This document shows positions 3,335 to 56,297 of a stretch of 64,000 nucleotides of DNA, one piece after another. The position numbers were made by a program, and so were the translations under genes. This stretch comes from a virus, in the IMG/VR virus record IMGVR_UViG_3300035698_017497, positions 1 to 64,000 of that record; one strand, written 5' to 3'. The notes beneath the pieces are model-generated. The model saw only the letters and a list, made by a program, of their open reading frames with translations, ran no database searches and was not told the origin of the DNA. Within the stretch, counting starts at the first letter, position 1. Each line of letters opens with the position of its first letter.

Positions 3335-3877
3335 TTATAATTGTTTTTGTGGGAATCTTTGGTAGAATTCTCTTACTATCCTATCAAGATCTACCGGATG
3401 ATAATTCTCATCCTCCATAGATATAAGGTATTGACGATTATCAAAATCGCAATCAATGTGCCTATTTCTATTATTGTGAAGATGCCCATGGATATTAAGG
3501 GTATGTCTGCTGCTGACTACCGGCTTGTGTGTAAAGATAATTCTATGACCATGCTTATCCATTACCATCTCGTCGGCGCAGAAATCAAAGCCATGCTCGA
3601 TGTACCAAAAGTGTGATTTACTAAGGTCGTGGTTCCCGCGAATTAGCCAGACTGTAGCTCCACAACAAGCCTCCATAAACTGGTCAGTCCAGTAAGTTGC
3701 TCTGTTCCAGACGAGATCTCCGAGATGTATTACGATATCGCAAGGCCTAATGCATTGAGTCATAGCCGCCAGAATTTGAGTCTCGAACGTTTTAGGCCTG
3801 AAACCTCTTTCTATTAATCTATCGTACCCGAGGTGAGTGTCGGCCACTATCCATATTTTCCTTCTGTCAACACCCAT
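3335..3877 (-). CDS. Calcineurin-like metallophosphoesterase
   Basis: A compact 180-aa metallophosphoesterase. All five metal motifs are visible: D13-T-H15 (ADTHLGY), G53-D54 (HLGDLV), G81-N82-H83-D (RGNHD), H117 and H130-G-H132. The length matches small single-domain phage and bacterial enzymes that hydrolyse phosphodiesters with a dinuclear metal site. The substrate is not determined; small family members act on 2',3'- or 3',5'-cyclic nucleotides or nucleic-acid ends. The start has GGAG upstream. It is first in a minus-strand run just after a terminator. Confidence 0.9.
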   Translation of the reverse strand: MGVDRRKIWIVADTHLGYDRLIERGFRPKTFETQILAAMTQCIRPCDIVIHLGDLVWNRATYWTDQFMEACCGATVWLIRGNHDLSKSHFWYIEHGFDFCADEMVMDKHGHRIIFTHKPVVSSRHTLNIHGHLHNNRNRHIDCDFDNRQYLISMEDENYHPVDLDRIVREFYQRFPQKQL

Positions 3878-3892
3878 TTTAACTCCTTAGTT

Positions 3893-3922
3893 AAAAAAAA
3901 AGGGCACGTAAGCGCCCCTTTA
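3893..3922 (-). terminator. Rho-independent terminator
   Basis: On the minus strand GGGGCGC and GTGCCC arms flank a short loop and are followed by a run of at least eight T. It closes the small-gene operon ending at 3925 and sits just upstream of the metallophosphoesterase start. Confidence 0.75.
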
Positions 3923-3924
3923 AA

Positions 3925-4077
3925 TTATTCCCCCATCAACAACCATATCAATACGCTTGTAACTGCTCCGCCAAAATATACAAAGTTAAGGTTTATATTT
4001 TCCGGGTGCGCATTGGTGACAAAAGTCATAAAGATTAATATTCCAATTGTTGATATTGCAGCTCCTATCGAATTCAT
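3925..4077 (-). CDS. Small two-helix membrane protein, 50 aa
   Basis: Two hydrophobic segments (about residues 4-20 and 31-47) separated by a short polar loop. The ATG at 4077 is chosen because AAAAGG lies about 9 nt upstream; a longer in-frame start would overlap the previous gene more. Last gene of its operon, followed by a terminator. Possible roles include lysis or superinfection exclusion, but there is no direct evidence. Confidence 0.6.
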   Translation of the reverse strand: MNSIGAAISTIGILIFMTFVTNAHPENINLNFVYFGGAVTSVLIWLLMGE

Positions 4078-14498: not shown

Positions 14499-14945
14499 TC
14501 ACACTTTCGATTTTGCGGCAGCTAGAGCAAGATCATCGGCTAATTCATTAAATGTATTGCCAACATGCCCTCTCTCCCATATCACCGAAAGCACCGGTAG
14601 TGCAGGTAACATACTGTAGATCTCTTTCCAGATATCTTTATTCTGAATAGGTTTACCATTACGCCTACGCCAGCCATTTTTTTTCCACGATTCGAGCCAA
14701 GCGGCATAACCGTTGACTACGTATTGTGAATCCGTATAAACAACTGCTTCAACGTATTGGTCCTTGATTATTTTTAAACATTCCAAAAAGGCTATTAGTT
14801 CAGCCTTATCGCTTGTCGTGTCTGATAACTTGCACGACCTCTGCAATACGACTTTGCCATCCTCTACTCCGACAATACCAAAGCCGCCGGGAGTTATTTT
14901 GCTTTTAGAGTTTCCAAGACATGATCCGTCTGTGTGGAATTCCAT
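14499..14945 (-). CDS. rnhA: Ribonuclease HI
   Basis: Cleaves the RNA strand of RNA-DNA hybrids. The catalytic set is visible: D6 (TDGSC), E49 (KAELIAF), D72 (YTDSQYV), with H127 in GHVGN and D137-D138 (LADDLA). At 148 aa it is a full-length single-domain enzyme, and the basic loop (WKKNGWRRRNGKPI) is the usual handle. Its ATG lies 1 nt after the stop of the reverse transcriptase, so the two are translationally coupled. This suggests joint action on a hybrid made by the RT, although RNase H could also remove primers in phage replication. Confidence 0.95.
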   Translation of the reverse strand: MEFHTDGSCLGNSKSKITPGGFGIVGVEDGKVVLQRSCKLSDTTSDKAELIAFLECLKIIKDQYVEAVVYTDSQYVVNGYAAWLESWKKNGWRRRNGKPIQNKDIWKEIYSMLPALPVLSVIWERGHVGNTFNELADDLALAAAKSKV

Positions 14946-14946
14946 A

Positions 14947-16080
14947 TTACAAGCTCAATTCTGGGAGACTGACCCCGTTTGCTTTATCAACCTTTTCGAA
15001 GTTTGCTTTCTGAAATTTCATTAACTGGTCCATATACTTCTGCCCTATTGGACGGTTGAGCATCATGAAGTATGCCACTTCGCCCCTTAGTGTCATGAGG
15101 TCGCCGAGAGTAGTCTCAGTAGCATGCTTTACGGTTGCATGATGGACCTTAGCCCTGATCAGTGATCGTTTCTCAAGCTTAAGGTTAGGTCTCTTATTTA
15201 TAACAACATTGCACGCACTCATACGGCTCTTGTTTGTAATAAAATAAGTCTTCTCATCATTAAGTTTAAGCTTAAACAGCTTAAGCGTTGATGGCACAAC
15301 TTTCATAACTTTATCACCAAGAAATGAACTTGACTTACTCTGGTGAGAGAACGCCATATCGTCAGCATATCTCGTGTATTTAATACCATACTCCTCAAGC
15401 CTGCGACCTACAATTATATCAAACTTCCTAAGAACAATATTGGCTATGAACGGAGATGTAGCGAAACCCTGAGGAGTCTTATTCTTATACGTTACAAGAT
15501 TTGTAATAAGATTCACTAAGGATACATAATCTTCATCTGTCTGTCCAGAGAACCATTTTAACTCATCACACACACGTGGAAATTCACCCTCAAGATTCCG
15601 GTATATCGAGGGGCAACATATACTACTTTTCATGTCGAGTACTTTTGTGCAGTGCTTGCACAGCGAGTACGATCCAAAGAGGATATTCTTTACATGATCC
15701 TTGGTGATGTTATCAAAGAAGTTCTTAATATCGAGATGCCCAAAAGATCTGGCTCCAACATGTTGCCATGCATTTGTGTGGACTCCGCGCTTTCTCACGA
15801 ATCCATGGGCATATTTGGATGGTTTATATTTTGAAAATACATTAGCCACAAGTTGTTTATGGATTGTTTTCAGATTGTCATTGGGTGCAACAATCTTTCT
15901 CATCTTCCCCTCTTTGCGCTTAGGTATCTCGAATTCATTTACGTAGTTACGCATATTCTGGGACACGGCTATGGTGTTAATAATGACATCCTGGAGAGTT
16001 TCGTTACTTGCACCGTCAATGTCTCCATTAAAAAACTCAGCCACTGTGTTGTTATAATTTGTTAGTATATTTAACTCCAT
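14947..16080 (-). CDS. Retron-like reverse transcriptase, 377 aa
   Basis: RNA-directed DNA polymerase. Visible motifs: LDIKNFFDNI (first catalytic Asp D117), PQGFATSPFIAN (203-214), YTRYADDMAFS (catalytic YADD 238-241). NAWQH at 103-107 matches the NAxxH element of retron RTs, and the TSP and YTRYADD forms also point to retron-type rather than group II or DGR enzymes. A Cys-rich insert (CKHC 141-144, CC 155-156) lies between the first Asp and the PQG motif and may bind zinc. A clear VTG motif is missing (ACNVVIN instead). The ATG at 16080 has GAAAGG upstream. No msr/msd was found. Confidence 0.9.
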   Translation of the reverse strand: MELNILTNYNNTVAEFFNGDIDGASNETLQDVIINTIAVSQNMRNYVNEFEIPKRKEGKMRKIVAPNDNLKTIHKQLVANVFSKYKPSKYAHGFVRKRGVHTNAWQHVGARSFGHLDIKNFFDNITKDHVKNILFGSYSLCKHCTKVLDMKSSICCPSIYRNLEGEFPRVCDELKWFSGQTDEDYVSLVNLITNLVTYKNKTPQGFATSPFIANIVLRKFDIIVGRRLEEYGIKYTRYADDMAFSHQSKSSSFLGDKVMKVVPSTLKLFKLKLNDEKTYFITNKSRMSACNVVINKRPNLKLEKRSLIRAKVHHATVKHATETTLGDLMTLRGEVAYFMMLNRPIGQKYMDQLMKFQKANFEKVDKANGVSLPELSL

Positions 16081-16240
16081 TACTTGCAACCTTTCCCTTG
16101 ATAGTGAAACACATATCATTAAAATTTATATTCAGCTCTTTAAGAGATCGCAGCATTCCTTCTTTGCTATTAACTGCTCTAGCTTTTGCCCTTGTACTTT
16201 TAAGTATTATTCGGTCAGTTAAACTTATGGCTTTCTTCAT
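16052..16240 (-). CDS. 62-aa protein preceding the reverse transcriptase
   Basis: Basic, helical small protein with GGAG upstream of the ATG; its end overlaps the RT start by about 29 nt. It occupies the place where a retron msr/msd would normally lie, and the sequence reads as coding. Function unknown; it could be an RT accessory protein. Confidence 0.6.
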   Translation of the reverse strand: MKKAISLTDRIILKSTRAKARAVNSKEGMLRSLKELNINFNDMCFTIKGKVASNGVKYTNKL

Positions 16241-24351: not shown

Positions 24352-27300
24352 ATGGTTAAGTATGTAGAATTTATGCGCTACGATGATCATGGTGAGCACA
24401 TCACTCCTGTTAATGACATGGAAAAGCTTGAGAAGACTGCTTCCAGAAAATATTCAGATACCATACTCAAATTCGTGTCAAATCTCAAGAAGCGTGATGA
24501 TAAATACTATGTAGTTATCAACGCCATGGGCGCTGAAGAGTTTTGGGGCGCTAATAATAATGGCGATGAGTTTCCTCAATCAGAACTTGACCATGTTGCA
24601 CTTCAGAGTGACGCTGGGACAGATAATGATTATGGCCACAAGACCTTCGAGTATTATGCTAAGTTTTACAAGCATCACGTTAATAAGAACCCGCTCAATT
24701 CCTTTGGAGATGTACTGCTATCCTATTGGAATCCGGAGAATAAGCGCGTTGAACTTGTAGTCGCTATTGATCGGTTCAAAGCTAAAGATATAGTAAAGCA
24801 ACTCGAATCAGCCGAAGATGTAAGTGTCTCAATGGGATGCTTTACTGATCCTAACTTTCCGGTACTAACTCGCAATGGTTACATTTCAATATCAGAGGTC
24901 AAGGTTGGCGATGAAGTCTTTACTCATAAAAAGCAATGGAAGAAAGTTACTGAACTTCACAGAAGAAAGTATACTGGGGATGTCCATAATATAAAATTTA
25001 GAGGACTAGCACTCCCGGTCGAAGTTACAGCAGACCATCCATTCATGGTTAAGATTTTCGAATCAGAAAGTAAAGACAAGGATAGGGCTTTTACTAACGA
25101 TGACGATTTTAACAAAGTTGAATTTGATTGGGCTCATGCTAACCATATAGAGAAATGGGACCACGTTGAATACATACCATGTGAATACGAAAATAATAAA
25201 TACGCATCTATAGGAGACGCCAGGCTTGCTAAAATTATGGGTTACTATCTAGCCGAGGGATCCTTCACTTATAATAATAAAAAGCCTGCAGTTGTTCAAT
25301 TGACATGTCATATAGATGACGAAATGGTAAGAATTGCTCCAAAAGTTATAGGTGAAATGTTTCCAGATGTAATGTGTAGTGTCGTCCCGCACCCAAACTC
25401 GAAATGTAGCGTTGTTGTAAATTTCTTTTCAACAAAGCTCGCATGTTTTTTGAAAAACTTTATTAAATCTGGGAGCAAGAGTAAGGTCATACCACCAGAA
25501 ATCTTTGTATCATCTAAAGATGTAAAATTATCTTTCCTTGGAGCATGGTTGAGTGGCGACGGATTCTGTGATAAAAAAGGTGTTCACTGGTCAACTGCCA
25601 GTCTAAACCTAGTACTGCAAGGGCGCGACTTATTGATGAGCTGTGGAATACCGTCGTCTATATATAAGAATATCCATAAAGCTGGCAGCGGGTTTAGCAA
25701 TACTGACACTACAGAGTATGTATTAAACATATCTCACATGGATGCTGAGCCTCTAGTAGAACACTCTGAGATGAAGCTGTCTAAATTGTCAGAAATAATA
25801 TCTGAAAGAGTAAAGGCTGGTAACTCCGCTATAAAGATAAATTCTGATAGTACTTATTCGTACAGCGTTAAATCTGTCGAAGTTAGAAGTGTCGAAGACG
25901 TAGTAGTGTATAACTTTGAAGTTGATAGTGATGAGTCGTATATAGCTGGAGGGCTAGTTAGTCATAACTGTCGTGTTAAGTACGATGTTTGCAAGATCTG
26001 CGGCAATAAGGCACGTAAAAAGTCTGAGTACTGCAAGCATATAAAAAATCATCTTAGGCAGATAATAGACAAAGATTTAGCAAGGCAATGGTCGAAAGAG
26101 CTTGGGAAAACTATTCTCCCTGGAACTAGAGTTACGATGATTAATATCAGGCCACGCTTTTTTGATATATCATATGTATACATTCCTGCTGATAAAATAG
26201 GATTTGTCTTGGGCAAAGTTGCGCATGAAGGAGATATTACAATGTCTGTTGATGTTGCAGATGCGTTATGTGTAACTGATAGCGATGTAGAGAAAGTTGC
26301 TGTGTTACTTAAGAAGAGCGAGATAGACAAAAGAATAACACCTTCTCCATCATCGCCAGAAGGTAAGATGTTTTCAGCTGATAGATTGATTAAATTAAAG
26401 AAAATTATAGACGAGGAAGCCGATAAGCAAGTTGAGAGCGAAGACGATATTCCTAAAGAGATTCTTAATCTGATTGCTAAGACTAGAGGCGAATCAGGAG
26501 CTATTGGAACATTGGATACGCTTGGGGTAGCTATTCGACCAAAGGAGCTGCAGAGAATAGTTCTTGTCTCAAGAGGCAATGAGGCGCTGGCTGATGACTT
26601 AGAACGTAGAGGTATCTTCTTTGATAATGTGGATTACCCAGAAAACTTTGCTCCATCGATTCCTAGTATGAATTTCGACAACAGTCTAATGTCAATACTT
26701 TCAAGAGTTGTTCCAGGTAGAAGCTCTCTTCCTCCTTTTATGACTCCAGAGCGTAGATCTCAGATTGTTATTATAAAGACTGCAGCTCAGGCTAAAACCG
26801 AATACGATACATCCGATGCTTTGGTTGCGAAAAGATCGCTACCCATACTTGCAGCAATAGCCGCTATATATATGGGGCTAAGATCTAAAGCTGGAGACAA
26901 GTCTATAGGAAATATGATGATAGATGCAGCGTCTAATCCTGCGACTGCTGCGCTAATAGGCGGAGGTGTTCTTTACAGTGCAGCTAAACATAATGCTAAA
27001 AATAAATTACCAGACGAGTTCTTTGTGCCTGCATCGGTATATGAACATGCATTCCAGGGAACTGAGTTTTCTGGCCATGTGAAGCAGGCCTCAATGTCAT
27101 CGTCTATTAAAAGAATACTTGGCAGTGAAGGTTTTAAGACTGGACTTAGAGCCACTAAGGGCGCAACAATAGCCTCAGTGGTAGCATTTCCGCTAGCTCA
27201 TCTCATCTCATCTTATAATAGAAGTAGCATTATACAGAAGGGTAAACCTGCAGGAGTACTGGCACATTCTGTTGATCCTGTAAAAACCCCAATATCTATA

Positions 27301-27369
27301 GCTGCTCTGGCTGGTGTTGGTGCAGCTTTATTAGGCAAACGTAAACCTCGAAAAATATTGCGCTTCTAA
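24352..27369 (+). CDS. Probable head maturation protease with an intein, 1005 aa (628 aa after splicing)
   Basis: The N-terminal extein (1-162) contains EFWGANNNGDEF, a His-rich helix (H108-H109) and VSVSMG just before the intein; the C-terminal extein starts C-R-V-K-Y-D-V-C-K-I-C with a four-Cys/His knuckle. This pattern is, from memory, that of phage head maturation proteases placed before scaffold and capsid genes. S160 in SMGC and one of H108/H109 are candidate catalytic residues. The C-terminal 300 residues include hydrophobic Gly/Ala segments. Motif copies include LEKTASRK at residues 26-33. The protease call rests on gene order and motif recall. Confidence 0.65.
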   Translation: MVKYVEFMRYDDHGEHITPVNDMEKLEKTASRKYSDTILKFVSNLKKRDDKYYVVINAMGAEEFWGANNNGDEFPQSELDHVALQSDAGTDNDYGHKTFEYYAKFYKHHVNKNPLNSFGDVLLSYWNPENKRVELVVAIDRFKAKDIVKQLESAEDVSVSMGCFTDPNFPVLTRNGYISISEVKVGDEVFTHKKQWKKVTELHRRKYTGDVHNIKFRGLALPVEVTADHPFMVKIFESESKDKDRAFTNDDDFNKVEFDWAHANHIEKWDHVEYIPCEYENNKYASIGDARLAKIMGYYLAEGSFTYNNKKPAVVQLTCHIDDEMVRIAPKVIGEMFPDVMCSVVPHPNSKCSVVVNFFSTKLACFLKNFIKSGSKSKVIPPEIFVSSKDVKLSFLGAWLSGDGFCDKKGVHWSTASLNLVLQGRDLLMSCGIPSSIYKNIHKAGSGFSNTDTTEYVLNISHMDAEPLVEHSEMKLSKLSEIISERVKAGNSAIKINSDSTYSYSVKSVEVRSVEDVVVYNFEVDSDESYIAGGLVSHNCRVKYDVCKICGNKARKKSEYCKHIKNHLRQIIDKDLARQWSKELGKTILPGTRVTMINIRPRFFDISYVYIPADKIGFVLGKVAHEGDITMSVDVADALCVTDSDVEKVAVLLKKSEIDKRITPSPSSPEGKMFSADRLIKLKKIIDEEADKQVESEDDIPKEILNLIAKTRGESGAIGTLDTLGVAIRPKELQRIVLVSRGNEALADDLERRGIFFDNVDYPENFAPSIPSMNFDNSLMSILSRVVPGRSSLPPFMTPERRSQIVIIKTAAQAKTEYDTSDALVAKRSLPILAAIAAIYMGLRSKAGDKSIGNMMIDAASNPATAALIGGGVLYSAAKHNAKNKLPDEFFVPASVYEHAFQGTEFSGHVKQASMSSSIKRILGSEGFKTGLRATKGATIASVVAFPLAHLISSYNRSSIIQKGKPAGVLAHSVDPVKTPISIAALAGVGAALLGKRKPRKILRF
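24838..25968 (+). other. Intein with LAGLIDADG homing endonuclease (in frame)
   Basis: Residues 163-539 of the host ORF. It starts at Cys163 with a block A-like VLTRNGYISISEVKVGDEV, has TADHPF (block B), two dodecapeptide motifs near residues 300 (LAEGS) and 400 (LSGDG), and ends with the block F/G sequence NFEVDSDESYIAGGLVSHN, with the +1 residue Cys540. All splice-junction residues (C1, His-Asn, C+1) are present, so splicing should be active, and the endonuclease looks intact. Confidence 0.95.
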
Positions 27370-27445: not shown

Positions 27446-28279
27446 ATGAGTTCTTTCGACAACCACCTTGAAGCTGTAATTGCTGGCAATGAAAAAACTG
27501 CTAGCGTTAATAGCGTTGTTGGTGACGACCTGCTTGCAAAACTCGCTGCCGAAGTACTTGGCTACGATCAAGAGGGTGCTGCTGCAAATGGTCAGGCTGC
27601 ACAACTCCCAAAAGCTGAAAATCATGTAAGCGAAATAGAGGCTGGATCCGCAAACCCCACTGTTGGCGCAAGCGCTGAGATGACATCTGCTATGGATGCT
27701 GTTGTTACTCCGGCTATCGCTGTTGCCGGTGCTGATATTGCTGCTATAGAAGCTGGCGAAGCTCCTGCTGCAGTTGTTGATTCTGGTGATGCTGCCACAA
27801 TTGGAACAGGAATACCTTCCGACGCTAAGCTCAAAAAAGAAATGGGCCTTGCTGCTGATCAGATCAAAGAAGCTCACCTTATTGGTGATGTAATTGCACA
27901 GAGTTTTTCAGAATCTCTTGAGAAACAGGCTTCAGACGAAGCTTATTCAGATTCTCTCGAGCTTCTTAAAGAAGCTGGACTTCTTGATAGCTATGTTATC
28001 CAAGACGAAGGTGTTGAGAAAGTTGCTTCCGAGCAGGTATCTGGACTTGAGAAAATCGCAGAAATGAAGGAGCTTAGTCATCAAGATATTATCAACGCTG
28101 CTTCTGAGTATGTTGATTATGTCAAAACTGCTTCAGAGATTGAAGTTGAAGCTCGCGAAGATGCACGTGCTGATGCTGCTCAGTCTTATGCAGACGATGC
28201 TATTGTTAAAGAAGCTTCACAGAAACCTGAAGTTGTAGAAGCTGTTAAAGTTCTTAAAGCAAACGGAATCATATCTTAA
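27446..28279 (+). CDS. Scaffold-like acidic head protein, 277 aa
   Basis: AAGGAG before the ATG. Rich in Ala, Glu, Asp and Val, probably low-complexity plus helical, located between maturation protease and capsid genes, where the scaffold belongs. It contains five or six motif copies (NEKTAS, EKQASD, VEKVASE, LEKIAE, VKTASE, VKEAS), consistent with a protein degraded by the protease during maturation. Scaffold assignment is inferred. Confidence 0.65.
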   Translation: MSSFDNHLEAVIAGNEKTASVNSVVGDDLLAKLAAEVLGYDQEGAAANGQAAQLPKAENHVSEIEAGSANPTVGASAEMTSAMDAVVTPAIAVAGADIAAIEAGEAPAAVVDSGDAATIGTGIPSDAKLKKEMGLAADQIKEAHLIGDVIAQSFSESLEKQASDEAYSDSLELLKEAGLLDSYVIQDEGVEKVASEQVSGLEKIAEMKELSHQDIINAASEYVDYVKTASEIEVEAREDARADAAQSYADDAIVKEASQKPEVVEAVKVLKANGIIS

Positions 28280-29379: not shown

Positions 29380-30405
29380 ATGCCTATCAGCGATCTTTCG
29401 ATCATTGAACACAATCAGAAATTTGTCGATATGCTTGAGAAGAATGCATCCGATGTTCGTGAAGCAGGACGTAATTTCCTGAAAACCGAACTTCAGGAGA
29501 GTGCGTTTTCGCGTGCTGTCATTCCTCAGGAGCCTATCACAGTTACTGATTGTAACACAAATATCAATGACGATTCACTTTATGTGATTCGTGACATTGA
29601 GCCTGATGCAGAAGCTGTAAGTGTTGATAATGTTGGTGAACCTGACGGTAAATACGTCAATGGATCACGTTACATTATTCCAATCGTTAACTTTGCCACA
29701 AAACGCCAGCAGATCACAGTTGAAGATCTTCGTGCATATCGTTACAAAGTTACAAAACGTATCGAAGATAAGACAGTCCCTGTCCTTGAAGAACTCGAAG
29801 ACAGATTGTTCCTTCGCCTTGCTGGAGCTGCTGTAACTACCAATACTCTTGGATCTACAGCTAAAAAAGCTCTTCTTGGAACCAACACTACCGGTGCTGA
29901 TGGCCTCTACCTTCACGAAAAAGATTTCGTGAAACTGAAAAACACTCTCGCTTCCGGTATTTCCGGTGCAGACACTAAGAGAAAAGAAGTTGGATGTCTT
30001 CTGATGACTCAGGAAACATACAACACTGCAGTTTCTCTTCCTGGTGCTGGAGATGATTTCGGTAAAGACAGAGTTCTTAATGGCGTTACTTCTGATATCC
30101 TTTACGGGAACAAGATTGTAACAACTATTAAGAGCAACATCCTTCCACAGGGACATGTCTGGGCTTTCACTACTCCTGATTTCCTTGGTCACAACTTTGC
30201 TCTCGGAGAACCTTCTTTTGAAATTAAGAAAGAGTTCAATCTTATCGAGTGGCAGGCACGTGAATCAATCGGTCTTGGAATCGGTAATGCACTCTCAGTT
30301 GCCCTGTTGACTCTTGTCGATTCTGCTACTGCCATCGCTACTGATGGTACAGTTGCATCTGCTGTTTCAGCTTACTACGCAGCTTTACGTCTGGCTACTT
30401 CGTAA
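29380..30405 (+). CDS. Major capsid protein, HK97-like, 341 aa
   Basis: Position after scaffold and decoration genes, its own terminator-bounded unit and a strong AAGGGG ribosome site support the major capsid call. The order of an N-terminal helical arm (with LEKNASDVREAG, probably cleaved), an extended E-loop-like region, and P- and A-domain strands is HK97-like. The gene uses frequent codons more than its neighbours, as expected for the most abundant protein. Confidence 0.85.
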   Translation: MPISDLSIIEHNQKFVDMLEKNASDVREAGRNFLKTELQESAFSRAVIPQEPITVTDCNTNINDDSLYVIRDIEPDAEAVSVDNVGEPDGKYVNGSRYIIPIVNFATKRQQITVEDLRAYRYKVTKRIEDKTVPVLEELEDRLFLRLAGAAVTTNTLGSTAKKALLGTNTTGADGLYLHEKDFVKLKNTLASGISGADTKRKEVGCLLMTQETYNTAVSLPGAGDDFGKDRVLNGVTSDILYGNKIVTTIKSNILPQGHVWAFTTPDFLGHNFALGEPSFEIKKEFNLIEWQARESIGLGIGNALSVALLTLVDSATAIATDGTVASAVSAYYAALRLATS

Positions 30406-47617: not shown

Positions 47618-47779
47618 GATAAGCATTACGTGCACCCAGAGGAAGGACTTATCCCCGTGTCGGTTATTAGGATGTTGCGCCAGTACCTAAGGACTGTGTC
47701 GCAGTCAATATTTTAGCAGCAATATACGTATTCCGACTGGGGGAATAGTCCATTTCTGGGTGCACTGGAAGCGCTTATC
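47618..47779 (-). repeat. Array element, nested three-helix structure
   Basis: GATAAGC (47618-47624) pairs with GCTTATC (47773-47779); GTGCACCCAGA (47630-47640) pairs perfectly with TCTGGGTGCAC (47755-47765); GGACT...CCCC (47645-47656) pairs with GGGG...AGTCC (47740-47751). A triloop hairpin (CAACG, loop AAT, CGTTG) follows at 47800-47812. Confidence 0.55.
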
Positions 47780-47932
47780 AGTATCCTTATACTACTTACC
47801 AACGAATCGTTGACATAAAACCTGTGTTAGTATGCATTTTTCTGTATCCTTATTTTTTTTAAAATCACTATTAATTCGTCTCAGTACAGTGCGTGACTTC
47901 ATCATGCACGGCTGCAAGAATAGTAAAATATA

Positions 47933-47949
47933 AAAGCTGAATCAGCTTT
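47933..47949 (-). repeat. Triloop hairpin H2
   Basis: AAAGCTG and CAGCTTT arms with loop AAT, enclosed at longer range by AAAATCACTA / TAGTGATTTT, a 10-bp pairing across about 110 nt on the minus strand. Confidence 0.5.
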
Positions 47950-48100
47950 CAGTAATAATATTAGTGATTTTCATTTTGCATTTAGTTCTCAATTTTACGT
48001 TGTTCGCGCTCTTACGCGCACCGGGTCAGTCATATCTCCCGTCAGGTGATGTGGATCATCCGGCCAAGCGTAGAAGCTTCTCCGCTTGTATTACTTTGGC

Positions 48101-48117
48101 CTGAACGAATCGTTCAG
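48101..48117 (-). repeat. Triloop hairpin H3
   Basis: CTGAACG and CGTTCAG arms with loop AAT, flanked by a strongly paired region to its left (AAGCG / CGCTT). Confidence 0.5.
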
Positions 48118-48174
48118 TTCTAATTCTTTGAGGAACAATGCCGATTTTTTAAACTTAACTTTAAATTTTTAAAC

Positions 48175-48365
48175 TTATAATTAATTTGTTATTGCCCGGT
48201 CTGAGAAGTTGCACATACATAACGAGGACGTAAATAACCTTCAGGATGGCCTTTAGGCTAACATCCTGAGGGTTGATTGTAGTCTCGTGGCGTATGGTAA
48301 GCTATGAGGCCGGTGAATTCACCATGTAGATAAAGAGTAACTCTTTACCATTTAAATAATATTTA
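48175..48365 (-). repeat. Array unit U1
   Basis: Box 48175-48190; stem CAGGATG (48242-48248) with CATCCTG (48262-48268); perfect palindrome GGTGAATTCACC (48312-48323); triloop hairpin TAAAGAG / CTCTTTA, loop TAA (48331-48347). Confidence 0.55.
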
Positions 48366-48387
48366 TAAGTTATTTTAAGATTAACAC

Positions 48388-48620
48388 ATGATTAATTTGT
48401 TTACGAGTATGCCCGTACTATGTTTCCAGCGTTCCTGGGTGGCTGAATCGCACCCGTGACCAAGTGACTTAAGGACATTGGATTTTCAATCGTCCATTAT
48501 TTTATAGTCAAGTAGTGTCCGGGTGCGATCTGCTCCCAAGACGCAGGAACAATGTACTGGCGAATGTTTTCTTCTACGCAATACATACAAGAGAAGCTCT
48601 TGCATAAAACTGTTGTTCAT
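48388..48620 (-). repeat. Array unit U2
   Basis: Box 48388-48401. Stems: GTTCCTG (48431-48437) with CAGGAAC (48544-48550); ATCGCACCCG (48447-48456) with CGGGTGCGAT (48520-48529); GGACATTG (48473-48480) with CAATCGTCC (48487-48495). Triloop hairpin CAAGAG / CTCTTG, loop AAG (48588-48602). Confidence 0.6.
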
Positions 48621-48652
48621 GTATTATTGTTGTCTGAATTGTTATCTAAATT

Positions 48653-48857
48653 ATGATTTAGTTTGTCTACTCAGGTGATCCGCGTGTATTGCTGACCGCT
48701 AGAGTGTCATCATTCTGGCCATACGGCTAAAATGTAATTTATTTACATTAGTCGTGAGGACGATGATGAACGTTAGCGGCGAAGCAATACCTGGCGGATT
48801 ACCACTACTATTTTAAAGATCAATACAAAAGAATCTTTTGTATATAAAAGTATTCAT
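48653..48857 (-). repeat. Array unit U3
   Basis: Box 48653-48666. Five stacked helices: 48674-48683 with 48794-48803; GTATTGC (48686-48692) with GCAATAC (48784-48790); CCGCTA with TAGCGG; TCATCAT with ATGATGA; AATGTAA with TTACATT at the tip. Triloop hairpin, 9-bp stem, loop AAT (48823-48843); TATTCAT 48851-48857. Confidence 0.65.
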
Positions 48858-48873
48858 AATTTTTATTTTACTC

Positions 48874-49053
48874 ATGATTTATTTCGTTGTACGAAATGGA
48901 TTCCTGGTTTCGAACGTTCTATAGCTTGCGTAATTCATTCGTTAGCGAAGCGGTAGAATGGTTTCGCAAGGCGGTAGGCGAGCGAAACCAGGATGTAGTG
49001 CTTTCCGGTAAAAAGGACATATAAGAGAAGCTCTTATATATAATGTTATTCAT
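48874..49053 (-). repeat. Array unit U4
   Basis: Box 48874-48888. TCCTGGTTTCG (48902-48912) pairs with CGAAACCAGGA (48983-48993), 11 bp; inner TTGCG/CGCAA. Triloop hairpin ATATAAGAG / CTCTTATAT, loop AAG (49019-49039); TATTCAT 49047-49053. Confidence 0.6.
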
Positions 49054-49080
49054 GAGTCGCTTTGTCATTTTTTTAGACAT

Positions 49081-49239
49081 ATGATTATATCGTAATGATA
49101 GGCGGCAACTAAAACTAGCGGAAAGCTAAATTTAATATACTTGTTTATTAAGTTCAGCTTTGTTCTAGTTATAGTTGTCGACACTTGGATAAAGTTGGAT
49201 AGACAATAGAAGCTATTGTCTTTTTTTATTAATGTTCAT
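49081..49239 (-). repeat. Array unit U5
   Basis: Box 49081-49094. CGGCAACTA (49103-49111) pairs with TAGTTGTCG (49172-49180); AACTAG with CTAGTT; AAAGCT with AGCTTT. Triloop hairpin AGACAATAG / CTATTGTCT, loop AAG (49201-49221), followed by plus-strand T's. Confidence 0.6.
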
Positions 49240-49255
49240 ATGTTTTTTTGTTTTT

Positions 49256-49401
49256 ATGATTTATTTTGTTTTGGAATTATACCAGCGGGTCATTCTAAAA
49301 ATGGACTGTTTTACTGTCCTTTTAGCAATTTACCCGCTGGTTAAAAGCCTGTACTACAAAACACATATATAAGAGAAGCTCTTATATATAGGGGTATTCA
49401 T
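49256..49401 (-). repeat. Array unit U6
   Basis: Box 49256-49270. ACCAGCGGGT (49281-49290) pairs with ACCCGCTGGT (49332-49341); CTAAAA with TTTTAG; GGAC (49303-49306) with GTCC (49316-49319). Triloop hairpin, 11-bp stem, loop AAG (49365-49389); TATTCAT 49395-49401. Confidence 0.6.
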
Positions 49402-49426
49402 AAAAACTTTTGATTATTTTTTAATT

Positions 49427-49672
49427 ATGATTCAGTTTGTTTATGGACATATCATATCCTCAGGTTGTGAGGTACGCTGGTCCGGATCCCTGTAGTGTAT
49501 CTATCTACATATAGATTCAAGAAAGTTAGGATCATAACGCGTAGATTAAGCGCGTGATGATCCTCTTTCATGAAACGTAAGTGATCCGGAAGGAGCCTCC
49601 GACAACCCATATGAGATGCCTGCGTTAACTAAGCAACATATAAGAGAAACTCTTACATATAAAACTATTCAT
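49427..49672 (-). repeat. Array unit U7
   Basis: Box 49427-49441. TTGTGAGG (49465-49472) pairs with CCTC...ACAA (49596-49605); TCCGGATC (49481-49488) with GATCCGGA (49583-49590); GGATCAT and CGCG (49529-49541) with CGCG and ATGATCC (49551-49563). Triloop hairpin TAAGAG / CTCTTA, loop AAA (49641-49655); TATTCAT 49666-49672. Confidence 0.6.
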
Positions 49673-53546: not shown

Positions 53547-54263
53547 TTATATCCATTCCCCATTACTATAAACGCACATTTCCTGTTCGCCAATAGCTAT
53601 TCCAGGTTTTCCTGAAACTATGGGACTTGTGATCCATTCACCATTCTCTGCCAACGCAAGGTAAGAATTGCCACTAAGACTAGCCTTCGCCAATTCAAGT
53701 GTTGGGAACGAGTGCTTAACTTTGAACTCTCTACCGTTCTTCGATATAGAGAATCCATACAGTTCATACTTAGACTTCGTAGACCCAGGGCGATATCCAT
53801 TTGATTTACCACCTGGCACTGATGGGTTTTGTTTTCTCTCACTCGACACTGGAACAGGAGGCACGACGCCGCCAGCAAAACTTTTATTGTCATCAACATC
53901 AGACACAGATACTTCTGAGACTTTTCTCTCGCCGACTATTACCGGTGACCCTATAGGTTTTACTACCTCTAGGCCAAATTCGTTTTTGGAATATTCTTCT
54001 TCTGCGATAACGTCTGAATTCTCAGCCTCTGCAGGTTCTAGTGACGGTGACTGATTAGAATTGTTACCATACTCAACAGCGTACTCAGGTAGCATACCTG
54101 ACGCTGTATTATCTTCACTAAGTTGAATATCATTATCTTCAGTCAAGTCTACTTCTGCGTAGCTTTCAAGTTCTGATGCGTGATCTATAGCCTCAGACAC
54201 ATCGACTATGTCGTCTGATACAGAGGCCACTACTTGGGTTTCTGGCTTTTTCAATTCAGGCAT
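53547..54263 (-). CDS. Acidic linker protein with a C-terminal domain, 238 aa
   Basis: The start at 54263 (MPELKKPE) follows ATGGAG. A long acidic disordered N-terminal region (about 1-130), a Pro/Ser linker, then a folded C-terminal part with two similar short units ending GEWI (VxGxPGIAIGEQEMCVYSNGEWI and ALAENGEWITSPI). Function unknown. Confidence 0.6.
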   Translation of the reverse strand: MPELKKPETQVVASVSDDIVDVSEAIDHASELESYAEVDLTEDNDIQLSEDNTASGMLPEYAVEYGNNSNQSPSLEPAEAENSDVIAEEEYSKNEFGLEVVKPIGSPVIVGERKVSEVSVSDVDDNKSFAGGVVPPVPVSSERKQNPSVPGGKSNGYRPGSTKSKYELYGFSISKNGREFKVKHSFPTLELAKASLSGNSYLALAENGEWITSPIVSGKPGIAIGEQEMCVYSNGEWI

Positions 54264-54348
54264 TATCATCTCCATATAGGTTTAAATTTTCCGTTGTAAA
54301 TAATATATCTAATTGTATTATGTGATACAATGTTTATGCAATTTTTTT

Positions 54349-54915
54349 TTAAATTACAAAATCGTACAATTCTCCATATTTAAATATAAATTCCTTGGCA
54401 GTGATCTCGTCATCGAAAATAACTACATTGTGATTGTCTAAAGTTTTCACATTACAACCGATGCCTTTATTATCTTTAGTCAGTATCATTGCTGCGTTTT
54501 TAACCATCCAATTATACGCTTCGCTATAAGCGTCATTTGAAGATGATTCTCTGAAATCAGATCTCGGGCTACATAAAAAGCTTACACTTCCGTCATCACC
54601 ATTAACGTCTGGATCGTTTTTTATATATTTACTAAGATCTATATCTTCAACTTCGGTGTGATTGATGGTACTGCCACAATCTTCATCGGTAGAAGATTCT
54701 CTAATAGCTATACCAGCATTGGCATGCATTACAGCTTCGCGAATCTTTTCTAAAACTACCAGCTTCTCCGAGCAATTTGGCATCAGCGGAAATACTGTTT
54801 TTGCAAATTCAAGCCCAGCATTCCTTATTTCAGAATACCGGTACACCTGGTCGCCAACTGGCGCATGGTATGAAAATATGTTCTTGATCTCGTCTTCATC
54901 GTATTCGTATTGCAT
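54349..54915 (-). CDS. Acb2/Tad1-family anti-defence protein with extra C-terminal domain, 188 aa
   Basis: Residues 10-72 (FSYHAPVGDQ, a helix, PNCSEKLVVLEKIREAVMHANAGIAI) match the helical-hairpin fold of Acb2 and Tad1 proteins, which sequester cyclic nucleotide signals used by CBASS and Thoeris defences. Usual Acb2 proteins are about 90-100 aa; here an extra 110 residues follow (Glu/Ser-rich linker, then helix and a strand-rich end). Whether it binds CBASS or Thoeris signals cannot be read from sequence. It lies among small acidic early-type genes. Confidence 0.8.
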   Translation of the reverse strand: MQYEYDEDEIKNIFSYHAPVGDQVYRYSEIRNAGLEFAKTVFPLMPNCSEKLVVLEKIREAVMHANAGIAIRESSTDEDCGSTINHTEVEDIDLSKYIKNDPDVNGDDGSVSFLCSPRSDFRESSSNDAYSEAYNWMVKNAAMILTKDNKGIGCNVKTLDNHNVVIFDDEITAKEFIFKYGELYDFVI

Positions 54916-54928
54916 AATTCTTCTCCTA

Positions 54929-55306
54929 TTATAGAATAGCGTTAATGTTGCCGGTGCTGAACGTTAATTTGTTTAATTCAATATTAATAGTTCTCTTTAT
55001 GCCTTCATCAAGTGATTTAGAGCATTCTTCCAAATGTATACATTCTGAATTTTCACATACCCATTCTTCACCTCTGAAACAGATATTATTTGATTCCGTT
55101 TTTTCCTGAAGACCACAATAATCTTTGAAATTATATGTGCATGTTTTACACGATCCTATCATTTTATCGGAACATATCTTGCACGGTAAATTGCAATAAT
55201 TTTTAATTATCCAATTATCAAGTACCAATCCGTACATCATACTTACAGTAAACACGTAAATAGTACATATCGACACTACCACAATTATGCCTGTAACTAT
55301 ACCCAT
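54929..55306 (-). CDS. Cys-rich membrane-anchored protein, 125 aa
   Basis: One N-terminal hydrophobic segment (TGIIVVVSICTIYVFTVSMMYG), then about nine cysteines in CxxC-like pairs (CKIC, CKTC), which would form a metal site or disulfides outside or inside the membrane. First gene of the operon that includes the Acb2/Tad1-like gene. Function unknown. Confidence 0.65.
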   Translation of the reverse strand: MGIVTGIIVVVSICTIYVFTVSMMYGLVLDNWIIKNYCNLPCKICSDKMIGSCKTCTYNFKDYCGLQEKTESNNICFRGEEWVCENSECIHLEECSKSLDEGIKRTINIELNKLTFSTGNINAIL

Positions 55307-55536
55307 ACCTTACTCCATTCTGATTATTCTGTAATTAATAAATAGCTATCTGCTTAATACATCACACAATTCTTTTTAAGAAAATCGATCATACTATTAA
55401 TCGCACGGTATGCTAGCGTGCCACCTACGTGTAGGTTATTATGCCTTTTCTCGATTTAATCTAGTTAATTTTTCATAATATAATCCTTGGTAGAAAATTT
55501 GAAATTGCGAACTTTACATAAAATATAGTTAATGCT

Positions 55537-55558
55537 TGCATTATTATTATTCCAGTTT
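55537..55558 (-). promoter_or_regulatory. Minus-strand promoter-like motif, copy 6 (weaker)
   Basis: On the minus strand TGGAATAATAATAATGCA, a variant lacking the AGTG end. It would feed the 55306 operon. Confidence 0.35.
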
Positions 55559-56003
55559 AAGCGGTTAAATAGCAAAAAATCTATTTAACATTACTTAACA
55601 TTTCTTAACGTGTTACTTTAAGTGACCTATGTATATCGTTTTACTGTATAGGCTTACAACTTTTTTATCTTCTATTTAAGCGCTTAAATTTAAAGTATCG
55701 GTTTAGGTGAGACACTCTACATCGTTATAAATCAAAGAGTTAATGCACATTTTCATGGCAACTAAAGCTACACTTTAACCGAACGCTAATACCGCCTTTG
55801 AGATCAACGACTTAACTCGTATGGCAAGGTTATTGCTAAAAACTTCATATATTCTTCTTTATTTATATAATATATAATATATATAAGTATATACTATTAC
55901 TATATATAGAGAGGTTGGTTGATGTTAGTGTGTTGCTCATTATTGTGTTTTACTGTGGACAAAATGCATGACTTTTACTTTTTGAGTTTGAAAAAATAAA
56001 AGT

Positions 56004-56031
56004 TAAAAAAAAGAGAAGGCTTTTTTCTTCT
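56004..56031 (-). terminator. Minus-strand terminator
   Basis: AGAAG arm on each side and eight A on the plus strand (T on the minus strand). With the promoter-like motif at 56177-56205 it would define a short transcript of about 170 nt. Confidence 0.55.
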
Positions 56032-56176
56032 ACAGTAAGGGGGCCCTGTTTTGGAGTGTTAACTTCCAAATGACCACACTCAAGTATGATAACACATTGA
56101 TTAAAAGAAAGTTACATGGAGCGAACTATAGTAAAGTGGTATATAGCTCCACTCTACTGCTGTAATATTGATATGG
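56032..56176 (-). ncRNA. Possible small RNA of about 150-170 nt
   Basis: Bounded by promoter-like motif copy 5 and a T-run terminator, with no ORF of note on the minus strand. Not matched to a known RNA. Confidence is low because both ends are predictions. Confidence 0.3.
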
Positions 56177-56205
56177 TTTAATCATATCACTATTATTATA
56201 TCATA
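56177..56205 (-). promoter_or_regulatory. Minus-strand promoter-like motif, copy 5
   Basis: On the minus strand ATAATAATAGTGATATGATT, identical to copy 1 over about 20 positions except one base. Confidence 0.5.
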
Positions 56206-56257
56206 AACTATACTGTAATAACATTAAATAAATTTGACATATAATATATGCCACGAT

Positions 56258-56266
56258 TATTTTATA
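56258..56266 (+). promoter_or_regulatory. TATTTTATA box, copy j, with an upstream TTGACA
   Basis: TTGACA lies 18 nt upstream of TATTTT, and the start codon is 32 nt downstream. The tail (GCCATAGTAATC) resembles copy b. Likely promoter of the tail chaperone. Confidence 0.4.
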
Positions 56267-56297
56267 GCCATAGTAATCATTTAAAGAAAGGGTCAGT

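What the first reader, a model, noticed from the sequence alone, without database searches (positions are those of the whole stretch)
54349..54915. Acb2/Tad1-like anti-defence protein fused to a new C-terminal domain
The N-terminal 65 residues match the compact signal-sponge hairpin. The additional 110 residues are absent from the usual 90-100 aa versions and contain an acidic linker and a folded end. It may widen the ligand range, add an enzymatic step or attach the sponge to another partner.
Basis: partly seen in the sequence, partly recalled or inferred. Interest (0 to 1): 0.74.

Follow-up and report, generated by a model that had tools for sequence, protein, structure and literature searches.

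The report
Acb2-type hairpin with orphan C-terminal domain
A bacterial virus carries a gene for a small protein of a type that soaks up bacterial alarm molecules, here joined to an extra end piece that matches nothing known; the front half is a recognised kind, the end piece is a real but unexplained addition.

Summary
ORF 54349-54915 (-) encodes 188 aa. Residues 15-70 match Pfam PF24729 (Acb2/Tad1 hairpin) at 34.3 bits against a cut-off of 27, and AlphaFold gives the Acb2 topology there with pLDDT 92-96. Residues 75-125 are acidic (net -9). Residues 111-188 are predicted, with modest confidence, as a beta-alpha-beta-beta-alpha-beta domain that matches nothing in Pfam, PHROGs, NCBIfam, the PDB or 50,697 phage records.

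Among 151 distinct hairpin proteins collected here the median tail is 2 aa, so a 118-aa tail is exceptional. Tailed versions exist elsewhere (Myrna gp211, 165 aa), with unrelated tails. It is an accessory gene: absent from 29 related phage records searched.

The function is inferred. Of five T4 Acb2 residues that contact cGAMP, Y8 is kept and K23 is Arg; the other three are replaced, as in the whole compact clade, so the ligand cannot be named. Most likely it is a working signal sponge with a tethered second module of unknown role. "Wider ligand range" and "enzymatic step" are not supported for this protein.

Side finding: other phage contigs fuse the same hairpin to a RyR domain, in both orders. 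RyR phage proteins bind or degrade cADPR signals.

The parts
54349..54915 (-). ORF, 188 aa: Acb2/Tad1-type hairpin plus C-terminal extension (P0001)
   Evidence: coding score in frame over all three parts
54922..54927 (-). AGGAGA ribosome-binding-like site, 6 nt upstream of the ATG
   Evidence: sequence read directly
54706..54873 (-). residues 15-70: PF24729 Acb2/Tad1 hairpin domain; helices 23-44 and 49-74, short N-terminal helix 7-13
   Evidence: 34.3 bits, cut-off 27; AlphaFold pLDDT 92-96 over 21-70
54586..54693 (-). residues 75-110: linker, acidic, low confidence in the model (46-65), segment 80-88 below 50
54352..54585 (-). residues 111-188: orphan C-terminal domain, predicted beta-alpha-beta-beta-alpha-beta
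   Evidence: same element order, pLDDT 58-79 and 53; no family match
53547..54275 (-). next gene downstream, 242 aa, no family; its C-terminal part is conserved in the related phage G001 (34% over 128 columns), which lacks the hairpin gene
54929..55306 (-). gene just upstream, 125 aa, one N-terminal hydrophobic helix and a cysteine-rich remainder, no family match

Best explanation
The gene is an accessory counter-defence gene of a tailed phage. The N-terminal 74 residues form a compact Acb2-type helical hairpin that most likely assembles into an oligomer and soaks up a nucleotide signal made by a host defence system (CBASS, Thoeris or similar). The C-terminal 78 residues form a small separate alpha/beta domain on an acidic flexible linker; if the hairpin hexamerises as in T4 Acb2, it would be displayed in six copies around the sponge. 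Its most likely role is a second binding module, for a ligand or a partner protein, rather than an enzyme. Shown here: the hairpin family match, the Acb2-like order of helices (prediction), one continuous coding frame, absence from related phage records. Inferred: oligomerisation, ligand sequestration, a folded C-terminal domain, and its role.
For: PF24729 above its curated threshold; two PHROG matches. [quoted passage not shown] PMC10419184). Top structural matches in BFVD are named Acb2/Tad1 hairpin proteins. It keeps 18 of 20 columns that are at least 70% conserved in 150 relatives, including Y16 (T4 Y8), R31 (T4 K23), A61 and A65 (T4 hexamer residues A73 and A77; PMC10097602). Accessory behaviour: no hairpin in G001 at the syntenic place or in 29 related records, with positive controls found by the same search. 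Precedent for hairpin plus second signal domain: L107 and L248 fuse it to RyR in opposite orders.
Against: No ligand binding is shown. T4 ligand residues H11, R79 and F82 are P19, A67 and A70 here, although the whole compact clade shares this. V54 replaces an alanine that is 97% conserved and corresponds to T4 A66, a hexamer-interface residue. The C-terminal model is of modest confidence (58-79; 53 alone) and rests on a single sequence. No homologue of the C-terminal part exists, so its conservation cannot be tested.
Confidence: 0.6

Rival explanations
1. Plain hairpin sponge with a dispensable or fast-evolving C-terminal tail. The extension was acquired by stop-codon loss or recombination and adds nothing specific beyond solubility or stability.
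For: The tail has no relatives; other hairpin proteins carry unrelated tails of 30-90 aa, several of which look low-complexity (L036, L131, L146, L153); the linker is disordered-like.
Against: The last 78 residues keep the same predicted alpha/beta element order in two models and coding signal as strong as the hairpin's; their composition is not low-complexity.
Confidence: 0.25
2. The C-terminal domain is a second nucleotide-signal module, so that one protein blocks two defence systems, analogous to the hairpin-RyR fusions found here in other phages.
For: Hairpin fused to RyR in both orders and as neighbouring genes in independent contigs; RyR phage proteins bind or hydrolyse cADPR signals (PMC13232231).
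Against: The window's domain is not RyR and matches no sponge or nuclease family; fold matches are insignificant, best E=0.06.
Confidence: 0.15
3. The hairpin is not a sponge in this protein: the domain has been reused for another purpose, such as protein-protein interaction, with the C-terminal domain doing the work.
For: Three of five T4 cGAMP-contact residues are absent and an interface alanine is valine.
Against: It keeps all the clade-invariant positions F14, Y16, H17, P19, Y27, R31, N66, which argues for an unchanged hairpin function.
Confidence: 0.1

Closest known systems
Acb2 (T4 Vs.4, PDB 7UQ2; Pseudomonas phage p26, PDB 8H2J)
   Same: PF24729 hairpin, short N-terminal helix then two antiparallel helices; Y8 kept (Y16), K23 as R31, A73 and A77 kept
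   Different: Shorter inter-helix turn; H11, R79 and F82 not kept; 118 extra C-terminal residues
Compact 67-80 aa hairpin proteins of environmental phages (phrog_1454-like; Paenibacillus, Gordonia and IMG/VR phages)
   Same: About 34-53% identity over the hairpin; same clade-invariant residues F14, Y16, H17, P19, Y27, R31, N66
   Different: They end within a few residues of the hairpin (median tail 2 aa)
Myrnavirus hairpin proteins (Myrna gp211, Phabba, ScoobyDoobyDoo gp210; 142-165 aa; probably phrog_31113)
   Same: N-terminal compact hairpin with a long C-terminal extension
   Different: Tail sequences are unrelated to this one
Tad1 (PDB 7UAV, 8SMD)
   Same: Shares the hairpin domain family and the SRE...EEA-hMW-N motif region
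   Different: Tad1 has an N-terminal beta-sheet domain before the hairpin; here the extra domain is C-terminal
Hairpin-RyR fusions L107 and L248 (IMG/VR)
   Same: Same compact hairpin joined to a second domain
   Different: Second domain is RyR (PF02026), not the orphan domain seen here

Membership tests
PF24729 Acb2/Tad1 hairpin | Profile match above the curated gathering score | tested here: met
   34.3 bits against 27, residues 15-70
PF24729 Acb2/Tad1 hairpin | Two long antiparallel helices | tested here: met
   H23-44 and H49-74, pLDDT 92-96 over 21-70, prediction only; matches named Acb2/Tad1 hairpin models
Acb2 (T4 Vs.4 type, cGAMP sponge) | Domain order: short N-terminal helix, then hairpin, no N-terminal beta-sheet | tested here: met
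   H7-13, H23-44, H49-74; topology as described in PMC10419184
Acb2 (T4 Vs.4 type, cGAMP sponge) | cGAMP-contact residues Y8, H11, K23, R79, F82 (PMC10097602) | tested here: not met
   Y16, P19, R31, A67, A70: one identical, one conservative, three absent; the 150 relatives share this pattern. It is therefore not filed as a T4-type cGAMP sponge, only as a PF24729 member
Acb2 (T4 Vs.4 type, cGAMP sponge) | Hexamer-interface residues A66, A73, A77 | tested here: inconclusive
   V54, A61, A65: two of three kept; A66 is valine here, alanine in 97% of relatives
Acb2 (T4 Vs.4 type, cGAMP sponge) | Hexamer formation and ligand binding | not testable with these tools
   Needs purified protein
Tad1 | N-terminal beta-sheet domain preceding the hairpin | tested here: not met
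   Hairpin match begins at residue 15; no strands before it
RyDEP / RyR-domain counter-defence proteins | PF02026 match with H75/W78/H100/D117 pattern | tested here: not met
   No RyR in the window at any useful score (best E=0.69)

The most novel reading that the evidence does not exclude
The orphan C-terminal domain is a new class of nucleotide-signal binding or degrading module, making this a bivalent counter-defence protein that blocks two immune signals at once, built on the same principle as the hairpin-RyR fusions.
Probability: 0.13. Interest if true: 0.65.

Novelty: new variant of a known kind. Interest (0 to 1): 0.42.

Why it matters
Sponge proteins are known mostly as single small domains. 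Rare members joined to second domains would show that phages combine counter-defence modules in one protein and could reveal new signal-handling domains. Here the second domain is an orphan, so the immediate gain is a candidate for testing, not an established function. The hairpin-RyR fusions met on the way give the same idea a testable case with a partner of known biochemistry.

Tried and rejected
C-terminal relatives: tblastn against 50,697 phages (best E=4), peptide-pattern scans of IMG/VR, full-length-first alignment scans of IMG/VR and of GTDB genomes, six-frame phmmer over the loci fetched up to then, search of related phage records: nothing. Weak Pfam HVO_A0114 match to residues 138-182 (E=0.03-0.08, below cut-off) and PADLOC LmuA (E=0.02) rejected as chance. 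Fold matches of the C-terminal model (MupZ, chloromuconolactone isomerase, EF-G domains, RRM; best E=0.06) are insignificant and come from a low-confidence model; they say at most 'ferredoxin-like arrangement'. Tad1 membership rejected by domain order. RyR as identity of the C-terminal domain rejected. Apparent C-terminal similarity of L099, L125, L131, L146 rejected: those matches run past the stop codon or into unrelated tails. Stop-codon reassignment in this phage rejected: coding density does not rise clearly under TAG=Q or TGA=W.

Full report
What is there. The reported ORF exists on the minus strand at 54349-54915 and encodes 188 aa, with an AGGAGA ribosome-binding-like site just upstream of the ATG. 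The window is part of a 125,756-base virus record. It is a tailed phage: its proteins match terminase large subunit, DNA primase and DNA polymerase exonuclease subunit families and ribonucleotide reductase. Coding scores are equally good over residues 1-74, 75-125 and 126-188 in the one frame and poor in all others, so the whole ORF is one gene, not a hairpin followed by accidental read-through.

The N-terminal part. Pfam PF24729 (Acb2/Tad1 hairpin) matches residues 15-70 at 34.3 bits, above the curated 27, and two PHROG families agree. An AlphaFold model built with 42 relatives from IMG/VR and GTDB gives helices 7-13, 23-44 and 49-74, with pLDDT 92-96 over residues 21-70. This is the published Acb2 protomer topology (PMC10419184). 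The strongest BFVD matches are named Acb2/Tad1 hairpin proteins. The hairpin comes first and no beta-sheet domain precedes it, so the architecture is Acb2-like, not Tad1-like.

The pocket. In T4 Acb2 (Vs.4) cGAMP is held by Y8, H11, K23, R79 and F82, and the hexamer needs L29, A66, A73 and A77 (PMC10097602). Aligned with 150 relatives and T4, the window protein has Y16 for Y8, R31 for K23, A61 for A73 and A65 for A77. It has P19, A67 and A70 for H11, R79 and F82. The same three replacements are nearly universal in the compact clade (P 99%, A 97%, A 99%). The clade therefore has its own pocket, and T4's ligand cannot simply be transferred to it. The window protein departs from the clade at V54 (97% alanine, T4 A66, a hexamer-interface position) and, trivially, at V41. 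With 2 departures in 20 conserved columns it is an ordinary member: 67 of 150 relatives have as many or more.

The C-terminal part. Among 151 distinct hairpin proteins collected from viral contigs and GTDB genomes, the number of residues after the hairpin has a median of 2 and a 95th percentile of 12. The window protein has 118. Tails are known elsewhere: Mycobacterium phages Myrna (165 aa), ScoobyDoobyDoo (148) and Phabba (142), and Streptomyces phage KimJongPhill (134); BFVD also lists a 195-aa member from phage MalagasyRose. The tails read here are unrelated to the window's. Residues 75-125 are acidic (13 D/E, 4 K/R). Residues 111-188 are predicted as strand, helix, two strands, helix, strand, in the full model (pLDDT 58-79) and again alone (mean 53). 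Both predictions use essentially one sequence for this part, so they are not independent. Fold matches are insignificant in the PDB and BFVD (best E=0.06 and 0.09). No sequence relative was found in Pfam, PHROGs, NCBIfam, PDB, 50,697 phage records, IMG/VR or GTDB genomes.

Context. The gene lies in a run of small minus-strand genes between a ribonucleotide reductase gene and structural genes on the plus strand. In the related phage G001 (99,937 bases; the gene at 29380-30405, taken to be the major capsid protein, is 73% identical) the downstream 242-aa gene has a homologue, followed by genes of similar size, but no hairpin gene is present. A profile search of 29 related viral records finds none either, while the same search finds the gene in G000 and in three positive-control records. 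Many of these records are fragments, so absence is suggestive rather than proof. It behaves as an accessory gene, as expected for counter-defence.

How it most likely works. The hairpin most likely forms an oligomer that sequesters a nucleotide alarm signal, protecting the phage from CBASS, Thoeris or a similar system. The linker would let a small C-terminal domain hang from each protomer. A second binding role is the most likely use; nothing supports catalysis. Sequestration and oligomerisation are inferred from family membership; the C-terminal role is open.

Side finding on the same hairpin. One relative, L107, carries the hairpin followed by a RyR domain (PF24729 E=8e-14, PF02026 E=4e-11). 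Its histidine, tryptophan, histidine and aspartate are spaced +3, +25 and +42, exactly as RyDEP H75, W78, H100 and D117 (PMC13232231). A scan with this protein found L248, a single 193-aa ORF with the two domains in the opposite order, and L250 with the two as separate neighbouring genes. L034 also has them as neighbours. [quoted passage not shown] That paper does not mention Acb2, and no paper listed from the held library holds both RyR and Acb2 together with CBASS or Thoeris. Fusion in both orders plus neighbourhood suggests that the two act together. It does not identify the window's C-terminal domain, which is not RyR, but shows that this hairpin does join second signal-handling modules.

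Verdict. Observation confirmed; interpretation partly supported; a new variant of a known kind with an unexplained second domain.

Noticed in passing
L107:1349-2119 (+); L248:1456-2034 (+); L250:1456-1701 and 1993-2418; L034:2887-3210 and 3376-4026: Acb2/Tad1 hairpin fused to a RyR domain in both domain orders (L107, L248) and as neighbouring genes (L250, L034). L107 keeps the RyDEP H75/W78/H100/D117 spacing. Suggests phage proteins that target cyclic oligonucleotide and cADPR signals together.
   Followed up: partly
window 14947-16119 (-): Reverse transcriptase gene (PF00078 E=6e-21, 390 aa) next to an RNase H gene (14499-14945, PF00075 E=5e-29). No template/variable repeat pair was found, so it is not an obvious diversity-generating retroelement.
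   Followed up: partly
L004:135-878 (-), record position 103135-103878: 247-aa protein whose N-terminal glycine-rich motif (VAIIGVGAVGSHVALQLAQMG) looks ThiF/E1-like; matches phrog_15670, function unknown.
   Followed up: no
window 47700-49600, 55307-56297: Stretches without long ORFs in an otherwise gene-dense phage genome; no Rfam family matches anywhere in the window.
   Followed up: partly
window 24352-27369, 27446-28279, 29380-30405 and others: Several virion-region proteins of this phage share a short motif like EKTAS/EKNAS near the N terminus; it recurs across unrelated ORFs and could be a processing or packaging signal.
   Followed up: no
Paenibacillus and Brevibacillus phage records (e.g. 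MH460826, KT151955): Compact Acb2/Tad1 hairpin proteins are annotated as 'putative phosphomannomutase', which appears to be a mis-annotation.
   Followed up: no
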